The notes under the pieces: model-generated | What the model was told of the DNA's origin: nothing | What the model saw: only the letters and a program-made list of their open reading frames with translations | Database searches by the model: none | Position numbers and translations under genes: made by a program | DNA from: a virus | IMG/VR virus record: IMGVR_UViG_3300017917_002466 | Location: 1-64,000 of that record | Length of the DNA: 64,000 bases | Direction: 5' to 3' (one strand) | Shown: in pieces, positions 14,282 through 54,668 of the stretch | How the letters are laid out: each line of letters starts with the position of its first letter | How positions within the stretch are numbered: position 1 is the first letter of the stretch

Positions 14282-14911
14282 TTATGAACGATTTCCAAAT
14301 AATCCTGTCATTGCTCCAATTCCTGCGGCAACTGCATTTTGCTTTGTAAAGATTGTAGACATTCTATCACATCCGAAAGTAAGACTTCTCTTAATACTTT
14401 CATTACTTGTATATGAATAACTTGCTTCAGAAGCTTGCAAAAAGTAAATATCGTGAAACGTATAGTAAACAACTGGAATGCCCATCTTATCTTGAACTTC
14501 TACTACAAAGGCTTTAATTTTCGCCTTATTAGGTGCATTGTAATATCCACTACTATCTATAATATTTCTTTGATTCCAATTTATAAAGTATTCAACATTA
14601 CCCTTTTCATCTTCTTCTAAGGTAACATTAAAATTGAATCCTTCAAATTTTAATACTGGAAAACTTCTTGGAACCTGACCATACATCATTACGACTTTTT
14701 CAAACTCGTATGTCGGAATTGTAACGTCAAGAATATGGAATGGTTGTATGACAGGAGGCATTTCAATCTGTCTTCCAACAGTTACTCCCTGAAAAGGATT
14801 ATAGATAAACAATCCAAAGAACTGCCAGTTTCTTTGAATGGATTTGCCATAAGCACTTTCGGGCTGCCTAAAGTATCTTTGAAGCTCTAATCCGTTTACG
14901 CCTATTGGCAT
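14282..14911 (-). CDS. Tail-tube-like protein downstream of gp19
   Basis: The start at ATG 14909-14911 (MPIGVNGLELQ) is chosen over an upstream in-frame ATG because AAGGGAG lies just ahead. The product has 209 residues. It shows the beta-rich pattern of tail tube or tube-cap proteins (PPVIQPFHILDVTIPTYEFE, ILKFEGFN-like strand, GIPVVYYTFHDIYF, then SYTSNESIKRSLTFGC), comparable in arrangement to gp19-like proteins. The C-terminus has a Gly/Ala-rich helix. A GIY-YIG gene has been inserted just before it and overlaps its ribosome binding site and first codons. It could be a second tube protein, tube terminator or hub tube protein. Confidence 0.5.
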   Translation of the reverse strand: MPIGVNGLELQRYFRQPESAYGKSIQRNWQFFGLFIYNPFQGVTVGRQIEMPPVIQPFHILDVTIPTYEFEKVVMMYGQVPRSFPVLKFEGFNFNVTLEEDEKGNVEYFINWNQRNIIDSSGYYNAPNKAKIKAFVVEVQDKMGIPVVYYTFHDIYFLQASEASYSYTSNESIKRSLTFGCDRMSTIFTKQNAVAAGIGAMTGLFGNRS

Positions 14912-15582
14912 TTTATCGGCTCCCTTGTTACTTTCCATCCTTTATATACTTTGCCACTTCTAATATGTCTCAACAAAGTCGTTTCATTGAAATTCTTGAA
15001 GTGTTTGCAGATTTCATCAGCACTTATAAATCTAAGATATTGATTAAATCCTTCTAATATGTATTTATACTTTGCCTTAGATAGCTTTATCTTTTGGATA
15101 CTTTCTTTAGAATGTTTGATTCCCATTCTTGGACTATCTTTTCCTTTTTTACCAAACATTGAATTTTTACTTCCTAATTGTGCATTTGAAATTTTTAGCT
15201 TAGTTTCTTCTGAATGAGGCCCGTTTGATTTTCCTAAATGAGATTTACTCATCTTCTTTTTATCTTCTTTAGTAAAACGGTAACCTCTTATAGAATGACC
15301 ACCTTTAGTATCATTATAGCCATTATTATAGGTATCATAAAAGCTTATCCAATGTACTTCTCTTTCATCAAGAGTTTGAAGATTATTAATACCATCTTCA
15401 ACAATATTCCAAACGAATTTATCAAATCCGTATTGAACAATAGCTTTATGAAAACGGGTTTTTTGATATTTAAAAGCTTCGTTACGGTGTTTGTTTTTAC
15501 GATATTCTAAAGAATTAACTGTCTGACCAATATAAGATTTATCATTGATAATATTTGTGGCTTTATAAATAAGCATTAACAA
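14902..15582 (-). CDS. GIY-YIG homing endonuclease with NUMOD3 motifs
   Basis: In this 226-residue protein the nuclease domain is N-terminal: LIYKATNIINDKSYIGQT gives the degenerate GIY and YIG strands, followed by R26-like and E-containing helices (LDEREVHWISFYDT). Residues about 100-160 hold NUMOD3 DNA-binding repeats (KMSKSHLGKSNG, KISNAQLGSKNSMFG, SPRMGIKHSKES). A helix-turn-helix-like tail (SADEICKHFKNFNETTLLRH) follows. This is the layout of free-standing Seg-type enzymes of T4. It lies between the tube gene and the next tail gene, ending within the latter's ribosome binding region. It carries its own structured leader at 15583-15664. Confidence 0.9.
   Translation of the reverse strand: MLMLIYKATNIINDKSYIGQTVNSLEYRKNKHRNEAFKYQKTRFHKAIVQYGFDKFVWNIVEDGINNLQTLDEREVHWISFYDTYNNGYNDTKGGHSIRGYRFTKEDKKKMSKSHLGKSNGPHSEETKLKISNAQLGSKNSMFGKKGKDSPRMGIKHSKESIQKIKLSKAKYKYILEGFNQYLRFISADEICKHFKNFNETTLLRHIRSGKVYKGWKVTREPIKCQ
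15062..15069 (-). promoter_or_regulatory. Late promoter TATAAATA inside endonuclease gene
   Basis: Minus-strand TATAAATA lies about 150 bases upstream of the tube-like gene at 14911. It is within codons of the GIY-YIG gene, so it may be coincidental. If active it would restore late expression of the gene behind the insertion. Confidence 0.35.
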
Positions 15583-15664
15583 CCTCCTGATAGGTTAAAA
15601 AATAAAGTGGTAATCCTTACTTATCAGGTTTCAGGAAAAGGGTGGCCACCCTCTGTCCCACTTT
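15583..15664 (-). promoter_or_regulatory. Structured leader (copy C) with predicted pseudoknot over the Shine-Dalgarno
   Basis: RNA order on the minus strand: closing stem P1 (bases 15658-15664 with 15604-15610, AAAGTGG/CCACTTT), GACA at 15654-15657, hairpin P2 (GAGGGT GGCC ACCCTT), hairpin P3 with a large loop, ATTA at 15611-15614, P1 closing. The P3 loop bases CCTGATA (15622-15628) are complementary to TATCAGG (15586-15592), whose last two bases are the start of GGAGG. A weak late-promoter variant TATAATAA (15670-15677) would place +1 at the first base of P1. Same design as copies A, B, D and E. Confidence 0.65.
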
Positions 15665-15672
15665 TAGTTTTA

Positions 15673-16221
15673 TTATACTAACTCCCAAAAATCAAATTGC
15701 CAGGTTACGTCATACTTAACGGATTCGTTACCACCATAAGCCATAGTAACGTCACCTATGTTCTGGATAAAACAATTGTAGAAGCGAATCTTTTTCTCAA
15801 GTGGTGCACCATTATAAGCATACATAAGTAAGTAAACATCTTTTGCCACATCTCTCTTTTTTGGTCTAAGAGACTGACCACCAGTTGGGTCATTTGGGCT
15901 AATATTATAAATCAAATTCTGCCAGAATGTCAATGCTTTGTGAACAATCTGGTTTTCAGTTTCTTCAATATTAACCGCAAATGTGGAACCAAAAGTTGGT
16001 TTACCAGGAAAGTATTGCTTCATACCAATAAACTCACTAGTAATAGGTTCATTACCGCGAGAAGGTATGACTACTGACCTTGCACGAATAACCAAGTCTT
16101 CTACATCACCCATTATTCCACCCGTTACATCTGCAATGGACGGAATCAAAAGCTCCCACATCCAGTTACGCTGAATGTCAGGTAGTTGTTTTGCTCTGCC
16201 TTCTATTGTAAAATTTGGCAT
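15673..16221 (-). CDS. 19: Tail tube protein, gp19-like
   Basis: This 182-residue protein (T4 gp19 has 163) begins PNFTIEGRAKQLPDIQRNWM and contains IQRNWMWELLIPSI, the beta-strand KPTFGSTFAVNIEET and the C-terminal strand VKYDVTWQFDFWELV, all features of the gp19-like tube family. The tube is a stack of hexamers through which DNA passes. The gene follows the sheath gene 18 with a 17-base gap, the invariant 18-19 order of T4-like phages. Confidence 0.92.
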   Translation of the reverse strand: MPNFTIEGRAKQLPDIQRNWMWELLIPSIADVTGGIMGDVEDLVIRARSVVIPSRGNEPITSEFIGMKQYFPGKPTFGSTFAVNIEETENQIVHKALTFWQNLIYNISPNDPTGGQSLRPKKRDVAKDVYLLMYAYNGAPLEKKIRFYNCFIQNIGDVTMAYGGNESVKYDVTWQFDFWELV

Positions 16222-18393: not shown

Positions 18394-19533
18394 TTACACC
18401 AAATCTTCATCCATAATAGCTGAAGGCTGCCAACTAGGATCACCTAAATCTTCCTGAGCATTAATTGCCTGAACTTCGTCTTCTTCTTTTCCTTCTTCCC
18501 ACTTACCTACTTGTACATTATACTCATCTTCTACATTCTTGGTTTCATAACTTTTTCCATTATAATCTTCTGTAGAAACAAAATATAAAGCCCAAAGTAA
18601 TGCTGTTACACAGTCATCGTGTTCGTGCCTTCCTGCCGCAAAAACATTTGGCTTAATTTCTTCAAATCTACTAAGTTCATAGATTGTTGGTTCGTCACAT
18701 ACTCTAATTCTATCTTTTTCAAGATATTCTTTAAGTAACATATTAGCTTTGAGTTTAGACTTTCTTGTACTTCTAACTCCTAAAGCATTTGGGTCTAAAT
18801 TAATCAAGTCCTCATATTCAAACTCGTGCCAAATTGTATCTGCTACAGTTCCACCAATATCATTGTTTTCAACCATCATATGGGCATTATTATAGAACTT
18901 GGCGACTGATACACATATCTGTGCAAAGTCTCTTGGATTAATCATATTGTTTCTGTAAATTGCTACTTGTTCAATATCATATTCATTTTTAATCCAAAGG
19001 ACTTGAATAACTGAATAATCTTTTCCTATTCCTTTACCAGTATCAACACCAAGCACATATTCTCCGCCGTGAACTGGTTGTCTATAAATTGACAAAAGTC
19101 CATTCCATTTGGTTGCGATTGGGTCTTTAAACTGAATTCTTTCAAGAACGTCCGAATCAATAAGAGTTGATTGACTTCCAAGAAATTTACAATTTTTACT
19201 TATAATATTATTTGTATAATAAGAATTATCAGAAGAATTAACTTGAAGTAATGTATAAACTTTTTCTTTCTTTTTATTCAATTCTATTTTAACTATTTCT
19301 TTTAAACCATTTTTTGTTTCAAGTAAATCGCCTTCAAGAAGATATTTTGATTGTTCTTCATTACCATTTATAATAAAAGTATGGTCAGTAGATACTTCAA
19401 TAATATTCTCATCTTCTAAAGTAAATTTTAAAATTTGAACTTTTTCTAAAACCTCACCGATACCAGCAAAAGTTTTAAAACCTTCAGGTGTTTCAACTTC
19501 AAAGTTTGATATAAATTTAGTTTTGGTTTTCAT
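18394..19533 (-). CDS. 17: Terminase large subunit, C-part: split-intein C-half plus nuclease domain
   Basis: Residues 1-114 of 379 are an intein C-half. They contain TPEGFKTFAGI, the block-B motif STDH, two beta stretches and the C-terminal ...NNIISKN. The next residue is Cys115, the +1 extein nucleophile, followed by KFLGSQSTLI, which matches the terminase sequence after the ATPase domain. The penultimate intein residue is Lys, not the usual His. Residues 115-379 are the RNase H-like nuclease: GVDTGKGIGKDYS (first Asp), MVENNDIGG, and HEHDDCVTALLWAL (last Asp). It should be joined in trans to the product of 20605-21510. The frame overlaps the endonuclease gene by 17 bases. Confidence 0.85.
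   Translation of the reverse strand: MKTKTKFISNFEVETPEGFKTFAGIGEVLEKVQILKFTLEDENIIEVSTDHTFIINGNEEQSKYLLEGDLLETKNGLKEIVKIELNKKKEKVYTLLQVNSSDNSYYTNNIISKNCKFLGSQSTLIDSDVLERIQFKDPIATKWNGLLSIYRQPVHGGEYVLGVDTGKGIGKDYSVIQVLWIKNEYDIEQVAIYRNNMINPRDFAQICVSVAKFYNNAHMMVENNDIGGTVADTIWHEFEYEDLINLDPNALGVRSTRKSKLKANMLLKEYLEKDRIRVCDEPTIYELSRFEEIKPNVFAAGRHEHDDCVTALLWALYFVSTEDYNGKSYETKNVEDEYNVQVGKWEEGKEEDEVQAINAQEDLGDPSWQPSAIMDEDLV
19192..19533 (-). other. Intein C-half (114 residues) of the terminase
   Basis: Coding segment for residues 1-114 of the C-part. It aligns in layout with the C-half of the AceL-TerL split intein as I remember it: a short leader, a TP(E/N)GF strand, a T/S-x-x-H motif, then the terminal Asn before Cys. 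Most of the intein's N-terminal domain is on this C-half, which makes the split atypical. Confidence 0.8.
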
Positions 19534-20518
19534 TCAATTTTTCCATAAATTGTTTTTCAGTTAAATAGTTTTTAGCCGAATTTATTTTACGAGAACAAAT
19601 ACATAAGTTTTTAAAAGAACCTATTTCTCTCGGATCAATCTTATTTACAAATCCATAATAAACAGAAATTTTATGGTCAATAGTTGGTTGCATAGAATTA
19701 GTATTAAAATGTCTATGATCTATTTTTTCATATTCTAAATTTCCAACTAATTTTTCTCCAGTATAATAATCATATCCATCAAATATTCTATAAACTCTAA
19801 TCCTATGTTTTAAAGTTTCATTTCTAACTAAAGACCAATATTTTTCATATTCAGTTTTAATTTTTCCAATCAACCATTTACCATTTTCTTCGTTACTTTT
19901 TCTTATTTTATCATAAACCCAATCTAATTGAGTATTCCACTCTACACCATATTTTTCTAAACAAGTTTGTTTTCTTTTATTTAAAATTATATTCAATTCT
20001 TCTTCAGTTAAATTTCTCCAAAATTTTTTTCTCTTTTCATTAATTTCTTTTTTATTTTCATTCAAAACTTTCCATCTAGCTTTAATACAAGACTTCATTA
20101 AAAAATTATGACTAACTCCATATTTTTCCTGAATAGTATTACTTTGTTTATTTTTGACATTTTCAACTTCCATAACATTATCGGCACCATATTTTTCTAA
20201 ACAAGTTTGTTTTCTTTTATTTGCTTCTTTTTTAACATCTCTTATTTCAAAAGATTTTTTAATTTTATCTCTAACATATTCTGATTTTTGTTGATGTTTT
20301 AAGCAACAAAATTTAGCATAACCTTTATTGTATCCATAAAATTTAGTTTCTTTTCCACAATATAAACATTTTCCTTCGTCTTCTTTTTTAATATGTTTAT
20401 CATAATATTCTTGTAAACTTATATTATGTTTTATTTTAAGATGATATTGACTAAAACTAATAATAGTTAAATTAGTTTGAATATTACATTCTTTACAAAA
20501 GAATTTTTCTTTTTCCAT
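19517..20518 (-). CDS. HNH-like homing endonuclease inside the terminase locus
   Basis: The N-terminus of this 333-residue protein is a C2H2-like finger (FFCKECNIQT...HLKIKH) followed by a second cysteine cluster (CLYCG...CCLKH). The middle has two KRKQTCLEKYG repeats and a related TIQEKYGVSHN, a pattern of DNA-binding modules. The C-terminus has PTIDHKISVYYGF and FKNLCICSRKINSAKNYLT, an HNH-like centre with DH and an N-containing helix. It sits exactly between the two halves of the split intein, so it is the endonuclease that would normally be embedded in an intein. A degraded relative lies at 23002-23167. Confidence 0.75.
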   Translation of the reverse strand: MEKEKFFCKECNIQTNLTIISFSQYHLKIKHNISLQEYYDKHIKKEDEGKCLYCGKETKFYGYNKGYAKFCCLKHQQKSEYVRDKIKKSFEIRDVKKEANKRKQTCLEKYGADNVMEVENVKNKQSNTIQEKYGVSHNFLMKSCIKARWKVLNENKKEINEKRKKFWRNLTEEELNIILNKRKQTCLEKYGVEWNTQLDWVYDKIRKSNEENGKWLIGKIKTEYEKYWSLVRNETLKHRIRVYRIFDGYDYYTGEKLVGNLEYEKIDHRHFNTNSMQPTIDHKISVYYGFVNKIDPREIGSFKNLCICSRKINSAKNYLTEKQFMEKLNENQN

Positions 20519-20530
20519 TTTTGACTCCTT

Positions 20531-20538
20531 TATAAATA
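20531..20538 (+). promoter_or_regulatory. Plus-strand TATAAATA of the inverted leader (copy E)
   Basis: Exact plus-strand TATAAATA facing into the terminase N-part. Its predicted +1 coincides with the first base of stem P1 of leader copy E. No gene follows on this strand. Confidence 0.45.
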
Positions 20539-20543
20539 AAATT

Positions 20544-20604
20544 TAGAGGGACATATAGGAGATTTGACTCGCCTATCGCAGAACGCCAATTCTGCTTACC
20601 TCTA
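20544..20604 (+). promoter_or_regulatory. Inverted orphan copy E of the structured leader
   Basis: Read on the plus strand: stem P1 (TAGAGG 20544-20549 with CCTCTA 20599-20604), GACA at 20550-20553, P2 (ATAGG 20555-20559 with CCTAT 20572-20576, extended inward by GAG/CTC), P3 (GCAGAA 20578-20583 with TTCTGC 20590-20595, loop CGCCAA), TTA at 20596-20598. This is the same order as in copies A-D. The adjacent endonuclease gene, however, lies on the other strand, and no complement to the P3 loop next to a Shine-Dalgarno is present. On the minus strand the same palindromic arms would still fold as a three-way junction. Confidence 0.5.
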
Positions 20605-21510
20605 TTATTTATATTTTTTACTTTTAAAAAATTCCCCAATTTCAATATTTTTTTCTACTTTCATCTTTATATCTCTAATATTTATAATAGTTTGTGAATT
20701 AGCGCATTGAAATTCTTGTGCGAATCTGATTGGGTTAGTATCAGCAATGGTTTGCTTTTTCCATTTTTCATCTCTACCAGGAACTTCCCACCAGCCAACA
20801 CTTATAGGAAAGAAGTTATTAGTATTTTCTGTTCTGATAGCCTTAGCCCAAAATTCATAAAAGTGGTTCAAACCCTTTGGGGTTGAAACCATAATAATCT
20901 TGTTGCCTTCATAGCTTGAAATAACTGGATAGGTTGATGTAATGAATTCTTCGGCAACGTGAGAAGGAACCTTGGCAAACTCATCCAAGAAAAGAAGGTT
21001 AACGGTTAAAGAGGTCAAAGCTTCCGCAGAGGTAGCAGATGCTAGTATCCTTGAACCATTCTCAAATTCAACAGACTTTTTATTCCAACCACTTTCTGTT
21101 AATCCTTGTTGTAGCCAAATAGGAAGCATTGTTATAGCTGTTTTAACTCTTTTTAAAATATCTACAGCGGCTTCTTGTTTATGAGCCACGATTGCAACAG
21201 TCTTATCCTTATTGAATAATGCATACCAAAGTAAAAAAATGGTTGAAACAGTAGTCTTTCCACTCTGTCTGGCTATCTTTACGATACAATGTCTCTTGTT
21301 ATTTGGGGTTTCTACGAAGGCTTTTAATACTTTCTTTTGCCATTCATAAAGAACAATCTTTGACTTTCCTTTTTTACCAGTAATAATATAAAAGTAATTC
21401 TCAGCAAAGTAAACAATATCCGTTTTACACTTGATGATTTCATCAATCATCTTTTGAGTATATTCAATCTTTTCACCAACTTTTCTTAAATTAGGATTTC
21501 CAAAAAACAT
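20605..21510 (-). CDS. 17: Terminase large subunit, N-part: ATPase domain plus split-intein N-half
   Basis: Residues 1-268 of 301 are the packaging ATPase: Walker A ARQSGKTT near residue 85, Walker B LLFLDEFA near 175, and the coupling motif VSTPKG near 210. The extein ends FAQEFQ. Cys269 begins an intein N-half of 33 residues (CANSQTIINIRD...IEIGEFF) and the frame stops at 20605-20607 inside a late promoter. Together with the C-part the exteins give about 533 residues, comparable to T4 gp17 (610). The two parts should ligate by protein trans-splicing to restore FAQEFQ-CKFLGS. Confidence 0.9.
   Translation of the reverse strand: MFFGNPNLRKVGEKIEYTQKMIDEIIKCKTDIVYFAENYFYIITGKKGKSKIVLYEWQKKVLKAFVETPNNKRHCIVKIARQSGKTTVSTIFLLWYALFNKDKTVAIVAHKQEAAVDILKRVKTAITMLPIWLQQGLTESGWNKKSVEFENGSRILASATSAEALTSLTVNLLFLDEFAKVPSHVAEEFITSTYPVISSYEGNKIIMVSTPKGLNHFYEFWAKAIRTENTNNFFPISVGWWEVPGRDEKWKKQTIADTNPIRFAQEFQCANSQTIINIRDIKMKVEKNIEIGEFFKSKKYK
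20606..20613 (-). promoter_or_regulatory. T4-type late promoter for the terminase-locus endonuclease
   Basis: Exact minus-strand TATAAATA that overlaps the stop codon of the terminase N-part and lies 88 bases upstream of the endonuclease ATG. Transcripts would start near 20600, at the arm CCTCTA of leader element E. Confidence 0.7.
20608..20706 (-). other. Intein N-half (33 residues) of the terminase
   Basis: Coding segment for Cys269-Lys301 of the N-part. It has the block-A order C-x4-T-x-I and a terminal IEIGEFF strand. Its length is close to the 25-residue N-half of AceL-TerL and far shorter than canonical split N-inteins (about 90-120 residues). Confidence 0.8.
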
Positions 21511-23001: not shown

Positions 23002-23167
23002 TTAATTTTTTCCAATTTTATTTTTAAATTCTTCTTCTGTCATATAATTTTTTACACTATTAGTACTTCTACTACAAATACATAAATTATTTATGAGTTT
23101 GATTAATATGAGACATTAAACCTTGTAAACTTTTACATTCTTTTCTGCAAATCTTACAAATTTCCAT
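23002..23167 (-). pseudogene. Internally deleted homing endonuclease remnant
   Basis: A 26-codon frame at 23087-23167 encodes a zinc-finger-like N-terminus (EICKICRKECKSLQGLMSHI). It is followed, out of frame, by coding for INNLCICSRSTNSVKNYMTE up to the stop at 23002-23004. The second piece matches the C-terminal part of the endonuclease at 19517-20518 (FKNLCICSRKINSAKNYLTE). Most of the central part, including the catalytic DH segment, is deleted. The cassette keeps its leader (copy A) and late promoter. Confidence 0.75.
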
Positions 23168-23173
23168 AATTTA

Positions 23174-23248
23174 CCTCCAACTAGGTTAAAAATTGGGATA
23201 ATCTTTTGAGTTGGCAAAAGAAACGCCCGTCGGCGCTGTCTCCCTCTA
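23174..23248 (-). promoter_or_regulatory. Structured leader (copy A) with predicted pseudoknot over the Shine-Dalgarno
   Basis: Minus-strand RNA: GGGA (23241-23244), GACA, hairpin P2 (CGCC GACG GGCG), hairpin P3 at 23203-23220 (CTTTTG, loop CCAACT, CAAAAG), ATTA, TCCC. The loop CCAACT is complementary to AGTTGG at 23177-23182, which runs into GGAGG (23174-23178). P1 is weak here (4 bp), P2 and P3 are strong. It precedes a dead endonuclease remnant. Confidence 0.65.
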
Positions 23249-23256
23249 TATTTATC
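23249..23256 (-). promoter_or_regulatory. Late promoter variant GATAAATA of the endonuclease remnant cassette
   Basis: It overlaps the stop codon of the cupin gene and places +1 near the first bases of leader copy A. One mismatch from TATAAATA. Confidence 0.45.
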
Positions 23257-25890: not shown

Positions 25891-26583
25891 TTATTCTCCT
25901 AAAAATTCATTAAGTTGAATTTGATTATTTCTTTTCTTACCATAAATTTTATGAAATTGTTTATGGCAATGATTACATAAACAAATTCCATTATCAAAAT
26001 CAACTCTTTTATCTTTATTTGAAACAAAATTCTCAATATGATAAGCTATTAAAGTTCCATCATATCTTTCACCAATATACCCACATTTTTGACAAGTAAA
26101 ATTATAATTTTGTAATATTGTTCTTTTCCAACGGTCATATCCATTAATTGATCGACCTTTAATTCTTTCTTTATAACTCAATTTTATTTTTCTTTTTATA
26201 GATTTTTCTATTGCTGAACAATCCAAACATCTTACTGAATTATAAGTAATCTTTTTTCCACAATCTTTACAATAATGTTGTTTAATAGAAACTCCATTTC
26301 TCCATTGTCTATTTCTCTCACCAGAAGTTGCACACTTAACACAAATATTTCTATATTGATAAAATTCTAATTCTGAAATTTCACCACATACATCACATTT
26401 TCTTAAAACTTTAGCTTTAGATTTTGGAAGTAAATCTTTTATACTAACTAAAATAATAGTTCCGTTTTTAATATACCATCTATAACTACTATCTTTATAT
26501 CTTGGAATTTCATAACCAAGACCTTCATAGTGTCTATAATTGCGGCCATTAATACTTACTTCAACTCTATCAGATAGTATCAT
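25891..26583 (-). CDS. HNH homing endonuclease
   Basis: The first third of this 230-residue protein is a DNA-binding-like region with GLGYEIPRYKDSSYRW. The middle has three cysteine pairs (CDVCG...CVKC; CKDCG...CLDC) likely to bind zinc. The C-terminus is an HNH centre: CQKCG, then AYHIENF, DFDNGICLCNHCHKQFHKIYG, where the paired cysteines and the two histidines fit the HNH consensus. The gene overlaps the previous gene by 14 bases and ends two bases before the gp13 start. This tight insertion between head genes is typical of free-standing homing endonucleases. Confidence 0.85.
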   Translation of the reverse strand: MILSDRVEVSINGRNYRHYEGLGYEIPRYKDSSYRWYIKNGTIILVSIKDLLPKSKAKVLRKCDVCGEISELEFYQYRNICVKCATSGERNRQWRNGVSIKQHYCKDCGKKITYNSVRCLDCSAIEKSIKRKIKLSYKERIKGRSINGYDRWKRTILQNYNFTCQKCGYIGERYDGTLIAYHIENFVSNKDKRVDFDNGICLCNHCHKQFHKIYGKKRNNQIQLNEFLGE

Positions 26584-26965: not shown

Positions 26966-27106
26966 TTAATACATTTTGGTATGTTTAACTAAATTATCTT
27001 CTTTAGTTAATAACTGAAGATTTGTATAATGACACAATTTATTAACCTCTTCTTCAGTTTTAGCAGTCACTAAAGGAATGATATGGTCTATATGATACCT
27101 ATTATT
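26966..27106 (-). pseudogene. N-terminally deleted HNH endonuclease remnant
   Basis: An open stretch without start encodes YHIDHIIPLVTAKTEEEVNK and then LCHYTNLQLLTKEDNLVKH. This is nearly identical to the C-terminal part of the intact HNH enzyme at 35027-35755 (YHIDHIVPLSTAKTEEDV). The whole N-terminal part is missing, and the piece is joined directly to leader copy B and its late promoter. It is therefore a deletion derivative of an endonuclease cassette between the major capsid gene and the next head gene. Confidence 0.8.
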
Positions 27107-27110
27107 TTAA

Positions 27111-27167
27111 AGTAGAGATAATCTTTGTGTTGGCAAAGAAAAGTTAATTACTCCCTGTCTCTCTACT
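27111..27167 (-). promoter_or_regulatory. Structured leader (copy B), endonuclease deleted
   Basis: Minus-strand RNA: perfect 8-bp closing stem P1 (AGTAGAGA 27160-27167 with TCTCTACT 27111-27118), GACA 27156-27159, P2 (GGGAGT/ACTTTT with G-U pairs), P3 at 27123-27138 (CTTTG, loop CCAACA, CAAAG), ATTA 27119-27122. The Shine-Dalgarno and partner strand are lost with the deletion of the gene start. Confidence 0.65.
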
Positions 27168-27171
27168 TATG

Positions 27172-27260: not shown

Positions 27261-28640
27261 TTACCATCCACGAACAGCAGTAGAAATTCCAGAAGGAAGA
27301 TTACTGGTTGTTGCACCCGGGATAAGCTTATTAACATTGTAGAACGGAATCAATCTGTAATAACGTCCACTACCAAGCAATGTATCGGTGATAGCATATC
27401 TGCTCATAACACCAATTCTTGGTGTGAAGTCAGCAGGGTGAATTGCCCTATTGGTAAGACCCATAATATAAGGACTGAAGATAATACCACAGTCACTGAT
27501 ACCATTGCCTTTGTAACCAATCAATGCATACTCTGTACGAGCATATTGATCACGATATACGTCCATTGTTCCATTCAACTTACCAATTGCGGCCATAACC
27601 TGAGTTGGGTTAACATTCTGGTTATAGTTGACAAAGGTATGTCCAGCAGCTTGAAGTGCAGTTGCAATCGCAGGAGATACGATAACAAAGTTACCTGGAC
27701 CTCTACGAGTTGTAACAGCAATCTTATTGGACTGATAGACAATTGCGCTAATGATGTTCATGTACTTTTCACCAGACCATCTTCCGTCGATACCAGTGGA
27801 GTTTACACCACCAGTAAGGTCAACGGCACCGATAACCTCTCCACCATTATTGGTGTTGACGGCTGCGGCCTTCATTCTGGCAATAAGCTCTCTGTCAAGC
27901 TCAGCAGTAACCTCGTACTGAAGGAACTGAACCATTTCCCTCTCAATGTCAATACCGTGCATAGCCTTTACGTCCTGAGCCGCTTCAAGGCTGAAGCTAG
28001 CTGCAAGCTTTCTGGTCTTAGCAGTAATTGCAAGCTGGTCAATTCTCATTCTAAGTTGAGGCCAGTCACCACAACCATTAGCAGACTCAGCAGTATCACA
28101 AGTGTTTGCGATAGTCCACGTTTCACCGGCGGATGTTGCAACACCTGTACCAGATGTATCATATACTCCAGTATCAGCAGAACTATTGTTCCAAGAACCT
28201 TGCAATATGCCAGATGTTCCAACCTGATTACCAGTGTATCCACCGTATTCAGGAACCTTATCCCAAGCAGCTTCATTTCCATTACCATCATCGTAAACAA
28301 CTCGCATAGCATAAGCAAGTCCAACTGGTGTTGACATTGCCTGCACGCCTACGACCTTGTTTGCGAAAAGGTCAGGGAAAGTACGTCTGACAAGGGCAAG
28401 GGCGATTGGTCTGAAAATCCAAGAGTCAGAAGCTGCGGCACCATCGGTGAATCCACCCATATTACCATAGTTCATATTACCCTGAGAAGTTTCAGTTAAA
28501 ACTTCCTGTCCGTTAAAGTCCTTTCTCTCTTGATTCTCCAAAAGAGTTGCAAGGTTTTCCTTAACGTATCTGTCCTTAATGTCCTTAATAGACATCTTAC
28601 CTTCGGCAGATTCCCATTTCTTAATTAGTGAAAGACTCAT
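27261..28640 (-). CDS. 23: Major capsid protein, gp23-like
   Basis: This 459-residue protein (T4 gp23 has 521) has an N-terminal propeptide of about 50 residues (LIKKWESAEGKMSIKDIKDR ... LLENQERKDF). It ends at EVLTE, where cleavage by the gp21-type protease is expected before TSQGN, as in T4. The mature part has the HK97-like landmarks of the family, including SWIFRPIALALVRRTFPDLFA, VGVQAMSTPVGLAYAMR and IGVMSRYAITDTLLG. The gene has GGGAGG ahead of its start, follows scaffold and protease genes, and is followed by a strong terminator. Codon use is visibly less AT-rich than its neighbours, as expected of the most highly expressed gene. Confidence 0.95.
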   Translation of the reverse strand: MSLSLIKKWESAEGKMSIKDIKDRYVKENLATLLENQERKDFNGQEVLTETSQGNMNYGNMGGFTDGAAASDSWIFRPIALALVRRTFPDLFANKVVGVQAMSTPVGLAYAMRVVYDDGNGNEAAWDKVPEYGGYTGNQVGTSGILQGSWNNSSADTGVYDTSGTGVATSAGETWTIANTCDTAESANGCGDWPQLRMRIDQLAITAKTRKLAASFSLEAAQDVKAMHGIDIEREMVQFLQYEVTAELDRELIARMKAAAVNTNNGGEVIGAVDLTGGVNSTGIDGRWSGEKYMNIISAIVYQSNKIAVTTRRGPGNFVIVSPAIATALQAAGHTFVNYNQNVNPTQVMAAIGKLNGTMDVYRDQYARTEYALIGYKGNGISDCGIIFSPYIMGLTNRAIHPADFTPRIGVMSRYAITDTLLGSGRYYRLIPFYNVNKLIPGATTSNLPSGISTAVRGW

Positions 28641-54585: not shown

Positions 54586-54668
54586 AGTATGTTAGGACAG
54601 GGAGGCATCCTTTTCTGACACGAACAGAATTACTGACATACTTCTTTCAAATACCTTATTCGTGGAGG
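54586..54668 (+). promoter_or_regulatory. Structured leader (copy D) with predicted pseudoknot over the Shine-Dalgarno
   Basis: P1 is AGTATGTTAG (54586-54595) with CTGACATACT (54633-54642), ten pairs including one G-U. GACA is at 54596-54599. P2 is GGGAGG CAT CCTTTT. P3 is TTCTG (54613-54617), loop ACACGAA, CAGAA (54625-54629). ATTA is at 54629-54632. The loop bases CACGAA (54619-54624) are complementary to TTCGTG (54659-54664), which leads into GGAGG at 54664-54668. Confidence 0.7.

What the first reader, a model, noticed from the sequence alone, without database searches (positions are those of the whole stretch)
18394..21510. Fractured terminase: atypically split intein with an endonuclease gene between the halves
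Seen: the ATPase part ends FAQEFQ followed by a 33-residue segment starting with Cys. The nuclease part starts with 114 residues ending in Asn before Cys-KFLGSQ. The two exteins join to the sequence expected of a T4-type terminase. A zinc-finger/HNH-like endonuclease gene lies between. Known: AceL-TerL is an atypically split terminase intein with a very short N-half, and fractured genes with split inteins plus free-standing endonucleases have been described from metagenomes. Inference: this is a new member with a 33-residue N-half and a different (HNH-like rather than Vsr-like) endonuclease in the gap.
Basis: partly seen in the sequence, partly recalled or inferred. Interest (0 to 1): 0.88.

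Follow-up and report, generated by a model that had tools for sequence, protein, structure and literature searches.

The report
Phage packaging gene rejoined by split intein
A large phage has its essential DNA-packaging gene cut in two by a selfish DNA-cutting gene, and the two protein halves carry the pieces of a self-splicing tag that should stitch them back together; the gap also holds a folded RNA element that, in this and other phages, sits in front of many unrelated selfish cutting genes and is not in the Rfam database.

Summary
terL is split at T4-gp17-equivalent residue ~353. The first half ends in a 33-aa IntN (Cys1); the second begins with a 114-aa IntC ending ...Asn|Cys+1. The exteins join gap-free, and empty-site relatives carry the same junction and the same Cys. 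IntC's best intein match by sequence and by fold is the Cat consensus atypically split intein, so this is a new member of the AceL/GOS/Cat-TerL family at the same site. All 80 Cat-like loci fetched sit there; 63 of 70 resolvable ones carry a GIY-YIG-type ORF in the gap. Here the gap gene is HNH-type. An Ace Lake relative carries EDxHD/Vsr-like genes, one sharing its N-terminal 124 aa with the window's HNH enzyme (69%) but with a different nuclease domain: module swapping at one homing site.

Unexpected: the gap holds a ~62-nt covarying three-way-junction RNA. It belongs to a family absent from Rfam 15 (P1-GACAG-P3-TTTC-P2-GATTA-P1'). In this 253-kb genome, 11 of 11 standard-orientation copies lie directly upstream of homing-endonuclease genes or remnants of three nuclease types; the terL copy is inverted. 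Splicing, homing and the RNA's role are inferred, not shown.

The parts
20707..21510 (-). TerL N-extein (268 aa): ATPase domain, ends FAQEFQ
20608..20706 (-). IntN, 33 aa, starts with Cys1 (CANSQTIINIRD...KYK), followed by the stop codon at 20605-20607
   Evidence: homologous IntN at the same site in L015, L017, L020, L022, L130, L132
20543..20605 (-). Structured three-way-junction element in the leader of the endonuclease gene (R1 orientation; relative to the general family it lies on the + strand, i.e. inverted with respect to the endonuclease gene)
   Evidence: 16 of 16 pairs kept in 6 distinct viruses, 8 pairs with double changes, 0/500 shuffles
19517..20518 (-). Free-standing homing endonuclease gene, 333 aa: zinc-finger-like N-terminus, DUF7487 / KYGV repeats, HNH-type C-terminus (TIDHKIS...NLCICSRKINSAKN)
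   Evidence: NG86 dN/dS 0.22 against L015
19192..19533 (-). IntC, 114 aa, all-beta Hint part, ends SKN | Cys+1
18397..19191 (-). TerL C-extein (265 aa): RNase H-like nuclease domain, starts CKFLGSQ
20606..20613 (-). TATAAATA, identical to the T4-type late-promoter -10 box, at the terN stop, 5' of the endonuclease leader; a second copy on the + strand at 20531-20538 makes the element symmetrical. Weak evidence as promoter
   Evidence: 21 boxes in window, 12.7 expected
15604..15664 (-). Second copy of the three-way-junction family, standard orientation, between a structural gene (15673-16221) and a GIY-YIG type gene (14902-15582)
27108..27168 (-). Third copy, standard orientation, between the capsid gene (27261-28640) and an HNH endonuclease remnant
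54587..54641 (+). Fourth copy, standard orientation, before a short GIY-YIG reading frame

Best explanation
A T4-type large terminase gene has been invaded at the codon pair ...QEFQ|C... by an atypically split intein plus a free-standing HNH homing endonuclease. Shown: gene structure, gap-free exteins, intein identity, same-site empty and occupied alleles, purifying selection on IntC. Inferred: the two polypeptides associate through IntN (33 aa) and IntC (114 aa), trans-splice (Cys1 attack, transfer to Cys+1, Asn114 cyclisation) and restore a full-length ATPase-nuclease motor, as packaging in T4-type phages needs both domains in one chain (established knowledge). Inferred: the HNH enzyme cuts empty terL alleles of co-infecting relatives near the junction, and repair copies intein halves, endonuclease and leader together. 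The N-terminal part of the endonuclease probably supplies target recognition, because it is conserved with the Ace Lake protein at the same site while the nuclease module differs. The ~62-nt three-way-junction element ahead of the endonuclease is most likely an RNA leader controlling its expression. It belongs to a family that accompanies endonuclease genes of several nuclease classes.
For: Gap-free join to gp17 and profile continuity 452/452. Empty alleles L005, L007, L008/L014, L016. CatC E 6e-8; Cat 6dsl the best intein fold hit, prob 1.00. Same site in 80 of 80 Cat-like loci and in Vibrio phage Va1. IntC NG86 dN/dS 0.10-0.16; endonuclease 0.22. HNH motif and fold. Domain swap with Ace Lake HEG1: residues 1-124 69% identical, then 68% identical to its neighbour HEG2. 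Element: covariation; 8 descriptor hits in 253 kb against 0-2 in six shuffles; all standard-orientation copies before endonuclease genes or remnants.
Against: No proteomic or biochemical evidence of splicing. The penultimate intein residue is Lys rather than the usual His (shared by L001, L015, L020; other site-c relatives have His), which could slow C-terminal cleavage. IntN is poorly conserved (42-50%). Pfam intein models alone do not reach their cut-offs. The HNH assignment rests on motif and a weak Foldseek E-value. The leader element is inverted in terL relative to its other copies, which a purely sense-RNA role does not explain.
Confidence: 0.85

Rival explanations
1. Dead intein: the halves are remnants, and the ATPase and nuclease polypeptides work as two separate subunits without splicing (as in the genes-in-pieces NrdA of phage Aeh1).
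For: The break lies at the ATPase/nuclease domain boundary. The penultimate residue is Lys.
Against: IntC is under strong purifying selection (0.10-0.16). Cys1, the block B S-x-x-H, terminal Asn and Cys+1 are all present. Several viruses keep the halves after losing the endonuclease (L017, L167, L169).
Confidence: 0.08
2. RNA-level joining: the gap is a trans- or cis-splicing intron and the folded element is part of it (the IBB_35 terminase was described as intein plus intron, PMC3322345).
For: There is a structured RNA in the gap.
Against: No Rfam intron match. Exteins are contiguous only after removal of intein-like protein sequence on both sides. The same element occurs between intact genes and endonuclease genes. 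Related halves exist with a 6-bp gap (L106).
Confidence: 0.03
3. The leader element is not a dedicated regulator but a transcript-processing or stability element, or a DNA-level feature of the mobile unit that travels with endonuclease genes in either orientation.
For: Found inverted in terL gaps. Flanked by inverted TATAAATA boxes. Some copies have no endonuclease downstream (L016/G007).
Against: G-U pairs at 6-10% in P1/P2/P3 fit RNA rather than DNA pairing. Copies sit about 16-37 nt before the endonuclease start.
Confidence: 0.35
4. The gap endonuclease is domesticated or inactive cargo rather than an active homing enzyme.
For: Degenerate copies are common nearby (23005-23166, 26966-27090).
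Against: The frame is intact, conserved at 48-63% in five other viruses with the HNH motif kept, dN/dS 0.22.
Confidence: 0.15

Closest known systems
AceL-TerL / GOS-TerL / Cat atypically split terminase inteins
   Same: Same gene and, by the Cat-like loci, same insertion site (NCEFLGS); split near the N-terminus with short IntN and long IntC; Cys+1; IntC homologous to CatC
   Different: IntN 33 aa (25, 37 and 30 aa in the named ones, PMC11766414); IntC only distantly similar to CatC (30% over the Foldseek alignment); penultimate Lys; HNH instead of GIY-YIG gene in the gap
Fractured genes with split inteins and free-standing endonucleases (Dassa et al. 2009)
   Same: Host gene in two pieces, split intein halves at the break, endonuclease gene between
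   Different: This one is HNH-type with a shared recognition part
Vibrio phage Va1 terminase (MK387337)
   Same: Split intein at the identical junction (NFEC...HNCNFLGS)
   Different: Endonuclease-like domain (DUF559/MTES_1575 hits) fused in frame in front of IntC; annotated only as terminase
Campylobacter phages CP21 / IBB_35 terminase
   Same: terL broken by a split intein with an endonuclease gene in the gap
   Different: Different insertion site; GIY-YIG/T5orf172 gene in CP21; further contiguous inteins; reported for IBB_35 as intein plus intron (PMC3322345)
T4-type endonuclease leaders (I-TevI, segB, mobE hairpins; seg43(25))
   Same: Structured RNA directly ahead of a phage homing endonuclease; the seg43(25) hairpin lies upstream of a free RBS
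   Different: Those are individual simple hairpins, mostly sequestering the RBS (PMC2988022). This is a recurring three-way junction with conserved junction bases in many phages

Membership tests
Atypically split TerL intein (AceL/GOS/Cat) | Intein (Hint) homology | tested here: met
   CatC E 6e-8; Foldseek Cat 6dsl prob 1.00, gp41-1, VidaL
Atypically split TerL intein (AceL/GOS/Cat) | Natural split leaving a short IntN (15-37 aa) | tested here: met
   33 aa; range from PMC13014065
Atypically split TerL intein (AceL/GOS/Cat) | Insertion at ...EF-|C(E/K)FLGS of terL | tested here: met
Atypically split TerL intein (AceL/GOS/Cat) | Nucleophile at 1, terminal Asn, Cys+1 | tested here: met
Atypically split TerL intein (AceL/GOS/Cat) | Penultimate His (usual, not strictly required in all inteins; own knowledge) | tested here: not met
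   Lys in window, L001, L015, L020; His in L009, L017, L022, L041
Atypically split TerL intein (AceL/GOS/Cat) | Trans-splicing activity | not testable with these tools
   needs co-expression or proteomics
HNH homing endonuclease | Homing-endonuclease family similarity | tested here: met
   phrog_3339 E 1.5e-14, phrog_12131
HNH homing endonuclease | HNH beta-beta-alpha metal fold and motif | tested here: inconclusive
   motif DHKIS...NLC.C.R..N..K kept in six proteins; Foldseek HNH nickase prob 0.97 but E 0.11; no Pfam HNH hit
HNH homing endonuclease | Cleavage of the empty allele | not testable with these tools
   biochemistry needed
Known RNA family (Rfam 15) | Covariance-model match to the gap element or its relatives | tested here: not met
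   no gathering-score match in the window or at element positions in 18 loci; low-threshold hits in the gap all below cut-off

The most novel reading that the evidence does not exclude
The gap element is one copy of an undescribed, widespread phage RNA family: a three-way-junction leader (P1-GACAG-P3-TTTC-P2-GATTA-P1') that marks and probably regulates free-standing homing endonuclease genes regardless of nuclease class (GIY-YIG, HNH, Vsr-like). It thus behaves as a shared regulatory part of otherwise unrelated selfish genes, and is also carried, inverted, in intein-fractured terminase genes.
Probability: 0.6. Interest if true: 0.82.

Novelty: new variant of a known kind. Interest (0 to 1): 0.7.

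Why it matters
The terminase is a clear natural case where at least three unrelated nuclease types occupy the gap of one split intein at one exact codon. Endonuclease-free, near-fused and fully contiguous versions exist in relatives. This makes the open question of how split inteins arise and persist (split first, endonuclease later, or the reverse; can they re-fuse?) directly testable by comparison. The shared N-terminal part with swapped nuclease domains gives a handle on which module sets homing specificity. The leader RNA, if confirmed, is a common control part for selfish genes of unrelated origin and a simple marker for finding them, including dead ones.

Tried and rejected
tRNA or tRNA-like reading of the gap element: ARAGORN 0 hits. 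Known RNA family: none. Late-promoter TATAAATA boxes as strong evidence: only 21 against 12.7 expected. DNA-level (cruciform) reading of the element: weakened because G-U pairs are present at RNA-like levels. Palindromic P3 loops: 43 of 53 against 29.7 expected, too weak to build on. The raw number of pattern hits is not evidence by itself, as many are expected by chance; only the arm-matching test (57 of 106 against 7.8) was used. A match in jumbo coliphages turned out to lie in a short coding region and was dropped. The alignment of P3 across subtypes was unsatisfactory, so P3 is not in model R2.
Full report
WHAT IS THERE. On the minus strand the window holds three consecutive genes: terN (20605-21510), a 333-aa ORF (19517-20518) and terC (18394-19533). 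terN is the ATPase part of a T4-type large terminase and terC the RNase H-like nuclease part. terN carries 33 extra residues after FAQEFQ, beginning with Cys; terC carries 114 extra residues ending in Asn before CKFLGSQ. Removing them joins the exteins without gap to T4 gp17 and at the same position of the phrog_2 profile (452/452). Residue 268 corresponds to about gp17 353, from the 2o0h alignment (query 2-273 to chain 112-383) and my assumption of a 25-residue tag, i.e. the end of the ATPase domain. Five loci from intact relatives (L005, L007, L008/L014, L016; L008 and L014 are one contig) read straight through the junction, and the Cys used as +1 nucleophile is already present in them.

THE INTEIN. 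The best PDB match of IntC is CatC, chain B of the consensus atypically split intein 6dsl (E 6e-8). The AlphaFold model of terC gives an all-beta N-terminal part whose best intein match is again Cat (prob 1.00, E 7e-4), followed by gp41-1; VidaL is also listed. Cat was designed from GOS-TerL and AceL-TerL (PMC11766414). The CatC sequence retrieved 80 IMG/VR loci with 78-86% identical IntC; every one continues N|CEFLGS and lies at the same terL codon. So the window intein is a distant ortholog at the AceL/GOS/Cat site; I infer this for AceL and GOS themselves, whose original records I did not locate. IntC evolves under constraint (NG86 dN/dS 0.10-0.16 against four relatives; endonuclease 0.22 against L015; IntN 0.41-0.74 on only 33 codons). 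One usual residue departs: Lys instead of His before the terminal Asn, shared with L001, L015 and L020.

THE ENDONUCLEASE AND MODULE SWAPPING. In 63 of the 70 Cat-like loci where both halves could be read, the gap holds a 189-aa ORF; one representative is GIY-YIG by Pfam. The remaining seven are: a 44-bp gap without endonuclease (L091), a broken endonuclease (L097), a 6-bp gap (L106, L109, L121), overlapping halves (L116), and a contiguous intein in an uninterrupted terminase ORF (L101). The window gene is different: PHROG homing endonuclease (phrog_3339), DUF7487 repeats, and a C-terminus with TIDHKIS...NLCICSRKINSAKN. AlphaFold/Foldseek put HNH domains in the first three places (4h9d twice, Cas9 HNH), with a best E of only 0.11. 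Five further viruses (L015, L022, L130, L132, L134) have the same gene at the same site, 48-63% identical. The Ace Lake virus (L020) has two Vsr/EDxHD-like genes there instead (class judged from motifs; the lake assignment is from my knowledge of the IMG sample number). Residues 1-124 of the first are 69% identical to the window protein, while its residues 149-492 are 68% identical to the second gene. A recognition part has therefore been recombined with another nuclease part at one homing site. Vibrio phage Va1 has the same split site with an endonuclease-like domain (DUF559/MTES_1575) fused in front of IntC.

MULTIPLE BREAKS. Relatives show that this terL is an intein hotspot. L015 and L017 have a second split intein in the Walker A motif (GK|T). 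L020 has that, plus a LAGLIDADG intein near residue 227, the site-c split intein and a further intein at HDD|C: four inteins, three gene pieces. Campylobacter phages CP21/IBB_35 have several at other sites; IBB_35 was described as intein plus intron (PMC3322345).

THE LEADER ELEMENT. Between the terN stop and the endonuclease start (20543-20605) lies a sequence that folds as a three-way junction (z -3.6 for the region). It recurs in L020, L022, L130, L132 and L134 with all 16 pairs kept, 8 of them with double changes (0/500 shuffles; slid controls 39-49% paired). L167 and L169 keep it although only the tail of the endonuclease remains, and L017 keeps a copy. L015 lacks it. Weak covariance hits led to a broader family read on the opposite strand: P1-GACAG-P3-TTT(C)-P2-GATTA-P1'.

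A descriptor search of the whole 253,664-bp genome found 8 copies against 1, 0, 0, 2, 1, 1 in six dinucleotide shuffles. Model R2, built from 15 mostly external copies (one from this genome), added 110148, 112533, 159853 and 189318 (159853 is marginal, E 0.096). Each of the 11 standard-orientation copies stands directly before an endonuclease gene or a remnant: GIY-YIG (15604, 54587, 69602, 71491, 110148), HNH type (112533, 189318; remnants at 27110 and 159853), Vsr/DUF723 type (136179, 187568). These classes were assigned from sequence motifs, not by a separate profile scan of each gene. A decayed twelfth copy at about 23180-23249 precedes another remnant. The terL copy is the only inverted one.

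In IMG/VR a sequence pattern for the family gave 106 distinct hits. In 57 the flanking arms extend P1 by three or more pairs, against 7.8 expected when arms are exchanged between hits, and 53 of those 57 contain two hairpins. Their downstream ORFs match mostly HNH, homing endonuclease and endonuclease VII PHROGs, while upstream ORFs are tail sheath, tail tube, major tail and portal genes. P1 covariation in 15 copies: 98.9% paired. G-U pairs are 6-10%, as expected of RNA. No Rfam 15 family matches, and two literature searches found no description. Not found at E <= 0.1 in T4 or Lak-A1; one marginal hit (E 0.025) in LIMEstone1.

HOW IT PROBABLY WORKS. Shown: gene order, split intein, shared site, empty alleles, selection on the intein, covarying element. 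Inferred: trans-splicing restores TerL; the HNH enzyme homes into empty terL; the leader controls endonuclease synthesis, by analogy with T4 (I-TevI, segB and mobE hairpins; seg43(25) with a hairpin upstream of a free RBS, PMC2988022). The analogy is of function only; the structure is different. The inverted position in terL is unexplained and is the main reason for caution.

NOVELTY. Split intein: new member of a known family. HNH gene in the gap and nuclease-module swapping: a new variant, as far as the literature held here shows (Dassa 2009, Bachmann and Mootz 2015 and Stevens 2018 were not held; Thiel 2014 was not looked up). The leader RNA family may be new in kind; probability 0.6 given no access to unpublished or subscription work and incomplete modelling of P3.

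Noticed in passing
window 23005-23185 (-): Internally deleted endonuclease remnant: zinc-finger start MEICKICRKECKSLQGLMSHINQTHK* then NNLCICSRSTNSVKNYMTEEEF (57% identical to the HNH tail of the terL endonuclease), with a decayed leader element in front
   Followed up: partly
window 26966-27090 (-): HNH endonuclease C-terminal remnant (HIDHIIPLVTAKTEEEVNKLCHYTNLQLLTKEDN) after the major capsid gene, with an intact leader element; a further HNH-like ORF lies at 25891-26583
   Followed up: partly
G000 72726-76229 (L129 1727-5230): Ribonucleotide reductase-like gene (1167 aa) with a contiguous LAGLIDADG-type intein, preceded by a GIY-YIG gene with leader element
   Followed up: partly
L020 (IMGVR 3300005976_000005): terL in three pieces with four inteins: split at Walker A, LAGLIDADG at about residue 227, split at 268 with two endonuclease genes, and one at HDD|C
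   Followed up: partly
L101, L106, L109, L116, L121: Series from a contiguous intein to halves separated by 6 bp or overlapping, at the site where relatives have an endonuclease gene; possible endonuclease loss or re-fusion
   Followed up: no
L041 2846-5131: Vibrio phage Va1: endonuclease-like domain fused in frame to IntC and the TerL nuclease half, annotated only as putative terminase
   Followed up: partly
L043 2541-6827, L040: Campylobacter phages CP21/IBB_35: terminase with a contiguous intein near Walker A, a split intein with an endonuclease gene in the gap (GIY-YIG/T5orf172 in CP21) and another intein; partly unannotated
   Followed up: partly
L042 3965-4858: Salicola phage SCTP-2: IntC at the Walker A site and an apparent second intein start at LLYC in one short terminase ORF, so this terminase is probably fractured as well
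   Followed up: no
L044, L045: Salmonella Ackermannviridae terminases carry an apparent contiguous mini-intein in Walker A, annotated only as terminase large subunit
   Followed up: no
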